Positions 9,572 through 11,708 of a stretch of DNA of 64,000 nucleotides are shown piece by piece. Within the stretch, counting starts at the first letter, position 1, and the number at the start of each line of letters is the position of its first letter. Below the pieces are notes generated by a model. The model saw only the letters and a list, made by a program, of their open reading frames with translations. It did not search any database and was not told the origin of the DNA. The stretch lies in NCBI RefSeq assembly GCF_002367995.1, contig NZ_AP018207.1, positions 6,398,646 through 6,462,645 of the forward strand, in the 5' to 3' direction. This DNA comes from Calothrix brevissima NIES-22 (GTDB taxonomy: Bacteria; Cyanobacteriota; Cyanobacteriia; Cyanobacteriales; Nostocaceae). The position numbers and the translations under genes are program-made.

Positions 9572-10633
9572 ATGGAGTCATTAAGTCAAAAGCTAATTGT
9601 GGGGATATGTCTGACAGCATCTTGGATAACTCCAGCATTGGCGCAGCAAGATTTACTTACCCGTGCAGAAGTTTACAAGTTGCAAAATCAAGTGCAATTG
9701 TTATTGAAAGATAAACCACCACGCGCTGCGAAAAAGGCTGATGTATTGGTTCCTTTAGATGCACTACAAACAAAAACGCGATCGCGGGCTGAATTATTAT
9801 TTAACGAAGGTGCGCTGGCGAGGATTGGTTCTAGTGCGACTTTTCTATTTAAGCCAGGACTCCGGCGTTATGAAATCACTAACGGCGTTTACAAAGCAGA
9901 AACTATTTTTCAATTGCAAAATGGTACGGCTGTAATCGCCAGTGCGGCTGGTAGTACGGGAACGACAATTGAAACGCCTCAAAGTCGGATTAACATTATT
10001 GCAGCCGCACCACCACCTGGTTCAGATATATTACCCCCAAATGTTACCAGTGGGGCTGTAGCTGTAACTCATAACGGTGCTACGAATACTACTCAAGTTT
10101 TTAATTTAACTAATTTACCTGTTACAGTTACCAATCTTAGCGGAACGCAAACCCAAACTTTACAAGCTGGTCAAACAGTTACCGTTAACAATGGGGTAAT
10201 CAGTCCAGTACAAAACTTTGACTTGCAGAAATTTTATCAAACCAGCCAATTAGCTACAGGATTAGGGCCAGGACAAGAAGCATTAGTAGCCCAAGAATCT
10301 CCGAATGTGCAGTTAATTCTCAATAAAGTGAGAAAAGAGACTTTAGCAGGATTAGAGACTCAAAAAGTCTGGATTGAAGGTTTGTGTAATGTCAATTCCC
10401 GTGGTGGAGCTAGTACGCTCTCTACGAATTGTATCACCACTAATGATGACCCACTGCGGAAATTTGAAGACGAGCGCAATCCCGTGACTCCCCAACCACC
10501 AAGAACAGACCAAAACAATCCAACCGGAGGACAAACTGGCGGTCAAACTGGCGGTCAAACTGGTGGTCAAACTGGAAGAGATACTGGTGTACCAACAGGC
10601 GGTCAAACAGGCAACCAAGGACAAATACCTTAA
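9572..10633 (+). CDS. Secreted FecR-domain protein
   Basis: About 353 residues with a Sec signal peptide (KLIVGICLTASWITPALAQQ). A FecR domain occupies roughly residues 45-150 (RSRAELLFNEGALARIGSSA, then GTAVIASAAGSTGTTIETPQ). A Thr/Asn-rich stretch and a C-terminal low-complexity tail of repeated GGQT follow. In cyanobacteria such proteins occur beside beta-barrel outer membrane proteins and CHASE2 proteins; here the barrel at 11709 is the probable partner, separated from it by the IscB element. The ATG at 9572 is preferred to the GTG two codons earlier. Its exact role in the periplasm is unknown; it has no companion sigma factor or TonB receptor here. Confidence 0.85.
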   Translation: MESLSQKLIVGICLTASWITPALAQQDLLTRAEVYKLQNQVQLLLKDKPPRAAKKADVLVPLDALQTKTRSRAELLFNEGALARIGSSATFLFKPGLRRYEITNGVYKAETIFQLQNGTAVIASAAGSTGTTIETPQSRINIIAAAPPPGSDILPPNVTSGAVAVTHNGATNTTQVFNLTNLPVTVTNLSGTQTQTLQAGQTVTVNNGVISPVQNFDLQKFYQTSQLATGLGPGQEALVAQESPNVQLILNKVRKETLAGLETQKVWIEGLCNVNSRGGASTLSTNCITTNDDPLRKFEDERNPVTPQPPRTDQNNPTGGQTGGQTGGQTGGQTGRDTGVPTGGQTGNQGQIP

Positions 10634-10639
10634 AATGCT

Positions 10640-10851
10640 ATCAGCTAAACACTGGATAACAGTGGAAAAGATAGTCAGATTAAGTCTTTAGAGGACTACG
10701 TTAAAAAAGTCATGACACCTAAGAATTCTTTCCAGTTTTTAGCTCTGTCGTTTAACTTTAAACATCCCTATTTAGCTAAGGAAGTGAGTTAAGCCTAACA
10801 AGCTTTTTTAACCTAATCGAGGAAAACATTACCCTAGCGATAGGAGGACAA
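10640..10851 (+). ncRNA. Candidate omega-RNA region of the IscB element
   Basis: IscB proteins use a guide (omega) RNA encoded directly upstream of their gene. This 210-base noncoding stretch is the only place it could be. It contains short stems, for example CACTG-gataa-CAGTG near 10652 and AAGC/GCTT near 10793, and ends in a good ribosome-binding site (AGGAGG). I could not assign the conserved omega-RNA fold, so the call rests on position. Given the damaged protein, it may be a relic. Confidence 0.3.
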
Positions 10852-11640
10852 ATGTCTAATTTTGTTTTTGTTCTAGACACTAATAAGCAACCGCTAAATT
10901 TAATTCCCCCAGGGGAAGCAAGGAGGTTGTTAACCCAAGGGAAAGCCGCAGTTTATCGGCGCTATCCGTTCACAATAATCTTGAAATTTTCTATAGCCAA
11001 TCGTGATGTAAACTCACATCAATTAAAAATAGACCCAGGTTCCAAAACCACTGGGTTAGCGATTGTGCAAGGAGATAAAGTTATTTGGGGTGCAGAGTTG
11101 ACCCACCGAGGCCAGCAAATCAAAAATGCCTTAGAATCCCGCAGTGTTATCCGCCGCAATCGACGTAACCGCAAAACCCGATACCGTAAACCAAGGTTCC
11201 TCAACCGTACTCGCACTGAAGGATGGTTACCACCCAGTCTAGAGTCCAGGGTACTCAATATTGCTACTTGGGTAAAAAGGCTTTGCCGATACGCTCCTAT
11301 TACTGGCATTTCTCAGGAGTTAGTGAAGTTTGATACTCAGTCTATCCAAAACCCTGAGATTTCCGGTAAGGAATATCAGCAGGGTGATCAGGGATTCCCA
11401 ATTAGGCATAAAACCAGATGCAAGTCTTTCTTTGGTTTTCAGACTGGCGATATGGTACGCGCCACCCTGCCATCAGGCAAGTTTGCGGGTGTCCATGTTG
11501 GGCGCTTAACTGTCAGAGAAAGCGGTGTATTTGAGATGAAGACCTTAATAGGAAAAGTCAGTCCAGTGAGACATAAATACTGTCAAATTCTTCACCGCAA
11601 CGATGGTTATATGTATGGATTTTCCACAAATTTCCCATGA
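10852..11640 (+). CDS. iscB: IscB-family RNA-guided nuclease with internal deletion (no HNH, no RuvC-III)
   Basis: 262 residues, against roughly 400-500 in full IscB. Present: the N-terminal PLMP domain (residues 1-50, FVFVLDTNKQPLNLIPPGEA), RuvC-I (LKIDPGSKTTGLAIV, Asp61), the arginine-rich bridge helix (97-120), RuvC-II (GISQELVKFD, Glu156) and the C-terminal target-interaction region (GFPIRHKTR to about 255). From the family, the HNH nuclease and the RuvC-III His/Asp motif should lie between SGKEYQQG (178) and GFPIRHKTR (181); they are missing, with the frame kept. The start has an AGGAGG site eight bases upstream. It lies between the FecR and barrel genes. It can hardly cleave DNA as it stands, but might still bind RNA and DNA. 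It differs from IsrB, which lacks HNH but keeps all RuvC motifs. Confidence 0.85.
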   Translation: MSNFVFVLDTNKQPLNLIPPGEARRLLTQGKAAVYRRYPFTIILKFSIANRDVNSHQLKIDPGSKTTGLAIVQGDKVIWGAELTHRGQQIKNALESRSVIRRNRRNRKTRYRKPRFLNRTRTEGWLPPSLESRVLNIATWVKRLCRYAPITGISQELVKFDTQSIQNPEISGKEYQQGDQGFPIRHKTRCKSFFGFQTGDMVRATLPSGKFAGVHVGRLTVRESGVFEMKTLIGKVSPVRHKYCQILHRNDGYMYGFSTNFP

Positions 11641-11708
11641 ATCAACTATTAGAGGAATACCGATCGCACAATCAAACAAACTGAATTTATTCTAAATCTT
11701 AAATAACC

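What the first reader, a model, noticed from the sequence alone, without database searches (positions are those of the whole stretch)
10852..11640. IscB gene that lost HNH and RuvC-III but kept its reading frame
Residues 1-178 are a good IscB N-terminus (PLMP, RuvC-I Asp61, bridge helix, RuvC-II Glu156) and 181-262 a good IscB C-terminus, joined at EYQQG/GFPIRHKTR. Around 170 residues that should hold HNH and RuvC-III are missing. The frame and all other parts look unmutated and the ribosome-binding site is strong. Short CAGGG repeats flank the junction (near 11380-11395). An RNA-guided DNA binder without nuclease activity, or a very recent decay product, would both be of interest. It is not IsrB, which keeps RuvC-III.
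Basis: partly seen in the sequence, partly recalled or inferred. Interest (0 to 1): 0.7.

Follow-up and report, generated by a model that had tools for sequence, protein, structure and literature searches.

The report
Nuclease-less IscB beside intact guide RNA
A cyanobacterial jumping-gene protein related to Cas9 has cleanly lost its DNA-cutting parts while keeping its reading frame and its guide RNA, and similar in-frame losses occur independently in other cyanobacteria, hinting that the non-cutting protein may still be useful.

Summary
Window 10852-11640 encodes a 262-aa IscB with PLMP, RuvC-I, bridge helix, RuvC-II and the C-terminal TAM-interacting domain; a 501-nt in-frame deletion removed HNH and RuvC-III. 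A full-length HEARO/omega-RNA lies directly upstream, the transposon ends are recognisable, and none of 69 strongly conserved columns of the retained parts has changed.

No second copy of this junction appeared in the rows listed, so no conserved family was found. It is an in-frame deletion derivative of an IscB mobile element; its guide has one perfect match, its own left flank.

The wider survey is more interesting than the single gene. Simple large internal deletions in IscB genes are nearly all in frame: 11 of 12 classified, window included, plus one found later, all with different junctions; short repeats predict 0.37-0.41. In one genome a mini-IscB sits at three sites with one identical junction, frame kept, pN/pS 0.21-0.27.

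Best reading: a nuclease-null omega-RNP, mobilised in trans. Whether it still works as a regulator or antagonist of active IscB is unproven.

The parts
10617..10636 (+). putative guide segment of the omega-RNA (left flank of the element)
   Evidence: upstream sequence of related copies diverges at 10636/10637; 19 nt of it have one perfect match in the genome, itself; guide position inferred from recalled IscB biology
10637..10832 (+). HEARO / omega-RNA scaffold, full-length model match 1-211
   Evidence: Rfam RF02033, 121.6 bits against a gathering score of 83; also found by the whole-genome search
10842..10847 (+). Shine-Dalgarno AGGAGG
   Evidence: read from sequence
10852..11640 (+). iscB derivative, 262 aa, HNH and RuvC-III deleted in frame
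11032..11034 (+). RuvC-I Asp61 codon, kept
   Evidence: alignment
11131..11211 (+). bridge-helix region, kept in sequence
   Evidence: RRNRRNRKTRYRKPRF conserved; boundaries approximate; low confidence in the model
11317..11319 (+). RuvC-II Glu156 codon, kept
   Evidence: alignment
11383..11394 (+). deletion junction (codons 178-181), two CAGGG words around it
11392..11625 (+). C-terminal TAM-interacting (PID/TI) domain, kept
   Evidence: alignment; block means of pLDDT 81-89 over residues 191-250
11641..11661 (+). right end of the transposon, ends near ...GAATACC
   Evidence: similar sequence after the stop in related copies, then divergence
11662..11667 (+). GATCGC target flank (part of a HIP1-like octamer)
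   Evidence: same word at the aligned place in 13 of 15 related rows, some of them identical copies; GCGATCGC at the matching place of empty site L123, not in empty site L124

Best explanation
The gene is an in-frame internal-deletion derivative of an IS200/IS605-type IscB (ISC) mobile element. It sits between two host genes with its left end, omega-RNA and right end preserved (shown). It can be moved in trans, since the genome carries Y1 transposases and one intact IscB (shown as presence, inferred as use). The protein lacks HNH and RuvC-III, so it should not cut DNA (inferred from motifs). It keeps the parts that in IsrB contact the omega-RNA, the guide and the TAM duplex, so it most likely still forms an omega-RNP that binds without cutting: it contacts its own omega-RNA and ribosome-binding site, and competes with intact IscB for the same RNA and empty donor sites (inferred). 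It belongs to a recurrent, polyphyletic class of deletion derivatives in which the reading frame is kept far more often than chance, so a translated non-nuclease product is probably favoured at class level. For this single copy, selection cannot be told apart from recency.
For: Domains, junction and 501-nt net loss. HEARO at 121.6 bits. Left end and right end. Own genome: 4 HEARO copies, one intact IscB, 7 Y1 transposase matches. Zero deviations at 69 conserved columns against a mean of 1.52 in 136 full-length IscBs. Of 88 short-frame copies, 11 simple in-frame deletions against 1 out of frame. Junction microhomology 0-5 nt in 6 of 6 examined; in-phase fraction of repeated 3-5 nt words 0.37-0.41. 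Frame-blind subset 10 of 11, P 0.0007 at p=0.40. Same-junction mobile trio with pN/pS 0.21-0.27. Model: PLMP, RuvC-I and TI parts confident. IsrB paper, passages read: PLMP touches the omega-RNA hairpin holding the Shine-Dalgarno sequence and this could regulate expression; the scaffold touches all parts except the HNH linker (PMC9581776).
Against: No same-junction homologue of this copy was seen. The guide is not reprogrammed. The model has pTM 0.49, pLDDT below 50 at residues 108-118 and 158-189 (bridge-helix end and junction), and matches IscB/IsrB structures only at TM 0.44-0.48, so RNP formation is open. Some other in-frame derivatives have lost most of the TI domain (L316, L317, L343, L349), so one shared DNA-binding role cannot explain the class. 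L316 and L341 look partly decayed: 5 and 3 deviations at conserved columns, and L341 lacks the first residues and a HEARO match. Frameshifted and nonsense IscBs are common (34 of 88), so IscB function is often dispensable. The frame bias rests on 12-13 events and was noticed after the first ones.
Confidence: 0.55

Rival explanations
1. Very recent, functionless deletion: the frame was kept by luck (about 1 in 3) and the product is dead weight on a non-autonomous element.
For: Single copy, unique junction among the rows listed. The deletion seen in Nostoc mirabile is absent from the full-length copy at the same site in N. favosum, so recent in-place deletions do happen. Many IscBs are broken.
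Against: Class-level excess of in-frame deletions and constrained divergence of a mobile derivative.
Confidence: 0.35
2. Domesticated RNA-guided transcription regulator, the IscB counterpart of TldR, repressing a host promoter.
For: Nuclease motifs lost while omega-RNA, RuvC-I/II, bridge helix and TI domain are kept. TldRs arose from TnpB by repeated nuclease inactivation (PMC13418256, passages).
Against: The guide has one perfect match, its own flank; 3-mismatch matches number 7, against 9 for the backwards control. No conserved partner gene or same-junction homologue seen in the listed rows.
Confidence: 0.07
3. Assembly or sequencing artefact that joined two ends of an IscB gene.
For: Reads were not available.
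Against: Contig of 8.5 Mb. Independent genomes show the same kind of event with clean frames.
Confidence: 0.03

Closest known systems
IscB (OMEGA, ISC transposons)
   Same: PLMP, RuvC-I, bridge helix, RuvC-II, C-terminal domain, HEARO RNA, transposon ends
   Different: HNH and RuvC-III absent, so no cutting expected
IsrB nickase
   Same: no HNH, RuvC-I/II, PLMP, omega-RNA
   Different: IsrB keeps RuvC-III and nicks DNA; this protein is by sequence an IscB that lost both. The same genome has a separate IsrB-like gene (L345)
TldR (nuclease-dead TnpB repressors)
   Same: transposon-derived RNA-guided protein with its nuclease inactivated
   Different: TnpB lineage; many TldRs have evolved associations with non-transposon genes, whereas this guide still copies the element's flank
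MITE-like and other non-autonomous IS200/IS605 derivatives (recalled)
   Same: ends kept, internal part deleted, moved in trans
   Different: here the reading frame and omega-RNA are kept

Membership tests
IscB | PLMP + RuvC-I Asp + bridge helix + RuvC-II Glu | tested here: met
IscB | HNH domain | tested here: not met
   absent from the ORF
IscB | RuvC-III | tested here: not met
   absent from the ORF
IscB | HEARO/omega-RNA directly upstream | tested here: met
IscB | RNA-guided DNA cleavage | not testable with these tools
   needs biochemistry; loss predicted from motifs
IscB | NCBIfam NF040563 cut-off 175 bits | tested here: met
   260.1 bits, but only profile 1-184 of 314; a name from this model overstates the function
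IsrB | lacks HNH | tested here: met
IsrB | keeps RuvC-III | tested here: not met
TldR-like regulator | nuclease inactivated, RNA scaffold kept | tested here: met
   (motif loss; activity not measured)
TldR-like regulator | guide aimed at a host promoter | tested here: not met
   one perfect match, its own flank
TldR-like regulator | conserved outside the transposon, with a partner gene | tested here: inconclusive
   no same-junction copy in the listed rows, which are truncated
Nuclease-null IscB deletion derivative (proposed class) | in-frame internal deletion with natural C-terminus kept | tested here: met

The most novel reading that the evidence does not exclude
IscB elements repeatedly shed their nuclease domains by in-frame deletion, and the resulting translated, mobile, nuclease-free mini-IscBs are kept by selection because their omega-RNA-binding half regulates the element or antagonises active IscB. 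That would be a naturally recurring, dominant-negative-like form of an RNA-guided nuclease.
Probability: 0.3. Interest if true: 0.85.

Novelty: new variant of a known kind. Interest (0 to 1): 0.55.

Why it matters
Nuclease-dead relatives are known for TnpB (TldR). No natural counterpart for IscB turned up in the listings of the held library (most subscription papers are not held). If mini-IscBs are kept by selection, then part of IscB's job in its transposon does not need cutting, which makes a basic question about OMEGA systems testable. The standard model names such proteins 'RNA-guided endonuclease IscB' above its cut-off (window, L028, L058 and L074; L343 falls below), so part of the class is hidden by annotation. 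They are also compact scaffolds of roughly 90-350 aa.

Tried and rejected
Same-junction homologues of the window gene: none in the listed rows of 8 genus, 217 family and 388 order genomes (lists of 8 and 17 truncated). Plasmid collection: 75 records with a match, 40 listed; 39 have two pieces that span about a full gene and one (H36) matched only residues 1-178 in one piece and was not opened.

Second target for the guide: none above control. HEARO retention as a mark of function: 9 of 10 in-frame deletion loci given have it, but so do 7 of 10 other broken or rearranged copies given, so it does not discriminate. Polarised dN/dS: usable for only 7 of 11 derivatives (not the window) and 9 of 27 controls; summed dN/dS was 0.081 in derivatives and 0.081 in their full-length sisters, against 0.175 and 0.047 in controls, but dS is saturated or negative in several cases, so it is weak. 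Selection against premature stops alone: rejected, since small frameshifts and nonsense copies are common (34 of 88). Phase bias of microhomology as full explanation: insufficient at the 0-5 nt seen.

Left out of the frame count: three deletion-plus-filler copies (L097, L335, L344; frame registers equal, but L097 and L335 have stops in the filler), and twelve further loci fetched and read, among them two small frameshifts, several cut by contig ends, and L364, an IsrB-like frame with an in-frame RuvC-III loss found inside one alignment piece. L346-L348 were also not counted. Nine of the 18 short loci were treated as duplicates of genome loci by matching contig lengths or sequences. Contig-end rows G430:C18, G310:C290, G222:C29 and G050:C128, and other distant (30-41%) short rows, were not fetched. 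The first pool of full-length genes used a motif too strict (117 genes) and was replaced (136).

Full report
OBSERVATION. The ORF at 10852-11640 is real: 262 codons, with AGGAGG starting ten bases before the ATG. Pfam RRXRR covers residues 5-178 and the NCBIfam IscB model covers only its first 184 of 314 positions. Alignment to full-length IscBs places the junction at EYQQG(D)|(Q)GFPIRH; the lost part carries HNH and RuvC-III. The net loss against the nearest full-length gene is 501 nt, in frame. The four best full-length relatives are 77-79% identical in the left part and 80-85% in the right, too far to see the parental junction.

THE ELEMENT. A full-length HEARO match (121.6 bits) runs from 10637 to 10832. 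Related copies align from 10637 onward and not before, which fixes the left end; the 16-20 nt upstream are the guide by analogy with known IscBs (guide position recalled). After the stop, related copies share a sequence like GATTAGAGGAATA-C and then GATCGC before they diverge, so the right end is near 11661; GATCGC is at the aligned place in 13 of 15 related rows, some of them identical copies (L147 has GATCGG, L224 is not alignable there). Of two genus relatives that keep both flanking genes, L123 has GCGATCGC at the empty site and L124 does not, so that GATCGC is flank rather than element is likely but rests on one site. The insertion lies between a 355-aa ORF without a Pfam match and a beta-barrel porin-like gene.

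THE GENOME. The host genome has 9.26 Mb. It holds one intact IscB (open frame 461), a second IscB that keeps the C-terminal part from about residue 96 on, an IsrB-like gene of about 362 aa without HNH by my reading, four HEARO copies, two of which have no IscB-like ORF of 80 aa or more in the loci held, and seven Y1 transposase matches. Trans-mobilisation is therefore possible. Its genus-mate G002 has an IscB at the same coordinates as one on a Tolypothrix sp. PCC 7712 plasmid, so the host is probably a Tolypothrix-like cyanobacterium (inference).

STATE OF THE GENE. At 69 columns conserved in at least 93% of 136 full-length IscBs the window protein has no deviation; the pool mean is 1.52. So either the deletion is young or the rest is constrained. 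The AlphaFold model has confident PLMP, RuvC-I and C-terminal parts (block means up to 95 and 89), but pLDDT below 50 at residues 108-118 (bridge-helix end) and 158-189 (junction) and pTM 0.49. Foldseek's ten matches at E up to 0.001 are all IscB or IsrB structures, at TM-scores of only 0.44-0.48.

SAME JUNCTION ELSEWHERE. None seen for the window copy. The searches instead turned up other deletions. L028 (Nostoc mirabile CHAB5784, the same locus as L166) lost RuvC-II and HNH. L058 lost HNH and RuvC-III. L074 lost HNH alone and is IsrB-like in layout.

SURVEY. In 160 loci found with an N-terminal query (80 from genomes, 80 from viral contigs), 142 have 400 codons or more and 18 are shorter. 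Among the 18, two are simple large deletions, both in frame (L166, L217), and none is out of frame. Adding short-frame copies from the listed rows (loci, and regions fetched), a rule-based classification of 88 copies gave 11 simple in-frame deletions, 1 out of frame (L107), 3 deletions with filler, 25 small frameshifts, 9 nonsense, 8 insertions, 14 with the C-terminus lost, 14 cut by contig ends and 3 others. The 14 with lost C-termini show no convincing C-terminal remnant in the 1.2-2.6 kb held downstream (best 25 bits; one has a run of N). The in-frame set is: window (L001), L028, L058, L074, L090, L316, L317, L318, L340, L341, L343. A twelfth (L349) was found later in the same genome as L340 and L343.

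IS THE FRAME BIAS REAL? Junction microhomology in six cases with a usable parent is 0, 1, 5, 0, 0 and 0 nt. Repeated words of 3-5 nt in IscB genes are in phase 0.37-0.41 of the time, so that is a fairer null than 1/3. Leaving out the window and L058, which were met through a query that spans a junction, and counting L349, gives 10 of 11, P = 0.00073 at 0.40; L028 was first met in the same way but also by the N-terminal query. All events give 12 of 13, P = 0.00014. Counting the three G758 events as one gives 8 of 9, P about 0.004 at 0.40 (by hand). The hypothesis was formed after the first three events, and the numbers are small.

A MOBILE MINI-IscB. In genome G758 three copies (L343, L346, L347) share one identical junction from the bridge helix to the last 37 residues and have different downstream flanks. 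Two are cut at the 5' side by contig ends. A full-length relative (L350) and two further in-frame derivatives (L340, L349) are in the same genome. Pairwise nonsynonymous:synonymous counts over 112 codons are 11.5:12.5, 10:14 and 5.5:6.5, pN/pS 0.21-0.27. Tree-wide that is about 30 changes with 16 or 17 synonymous, P 0.0003 or less for a synonymous share of 0.228 and 0.002-0.006 for 0.30. Gene conversion with L340-like copies could mimic part of this.

MECHANISM. In IsrB the omega-RNA scaffold touches all parts except the HNH linker, the PLMP domain contacts the terminal hairpin that holds the Shine-Dalgarno sequence, and the C-terminal domain reads the TAM (PMC9581776, passages read). The window protein keeps these regions, so binding of omega-RNA and perhaps of target DNA without cutting is the most likely surviving activity (inference). 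Its guide has no second perfect target in the genome, so the likely partners are its own leader RNA, empty donor sites and the RNA pool of intact IscB. A TldR-like role is not indicated. TldR facts come from passages of PMC13418256.

NOVELTY. The listings of six library searches showed no description of natural nuclease-null IscB deletion derivatives. Two papers I wanted, the OMEGA paper of 2021 and the TldR paper of 2024, are not held. I rate the gene a new variant of a known kind. The class-level frame retention is the part worth following.

Noticed in passing
L006, L011-L014, L021, L022 (own genome G000:C1:3209900 and genus-mates): A stand-alone 64-72 aa PLMP-only miniprotein (RRXRR positions 1-58 for L012) is conserved in the genus with partly alignable flanks, pN/pS 0.00-0.27 among five copies, and no HEARO match up to E 0.1 in the four loci tested. 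Many family genomes have a best IscB match of only about E 1e-8 to 1e-14 whose place was not listed, perhaps the same thing. Possibly a domesticated IscB N-terminus.
   Followed up: partly
window 11662-11667 and right flanks of related copies: The window's IscB subfamily seems to insert directly beside GATCGC, the core of the abundant HIP1 octamer GCGATCGC (64 copies in this 64-kb window against 0.5 expected), suggesting a HIP1-like TAM. It is not general: 22 of 131 full-length copies have CGATCG within 80 nt of the stop, background 6%.
   Followed up: partly
L364 (G275:C16): IsrB-like 319-codon frame that lacks the stretch with the RuvC-III motif seen in L367, in frame: a possible nuclease-dead IsrB.
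   Followed up: no
L133, L134 (own genome): Two HEARO RNAs (149.5 and 140.2 bits) with no IscB-like ORF of 80 aa or more in the loci held.
   Followed up: no
L018-L020, L026, L027: C-terminal IscB remnants (frames up to 54 codons) in several genus-mates, with a weak HEARO-like match on L018 (31.9 bits, below the gathering score).
   Followed up: no
L166 and L160: Nostoc mirabile carries the deleted IscB at the same site where N. favosum has the full-length one: an in-place loss of 474 nt.
   Followed up: yes
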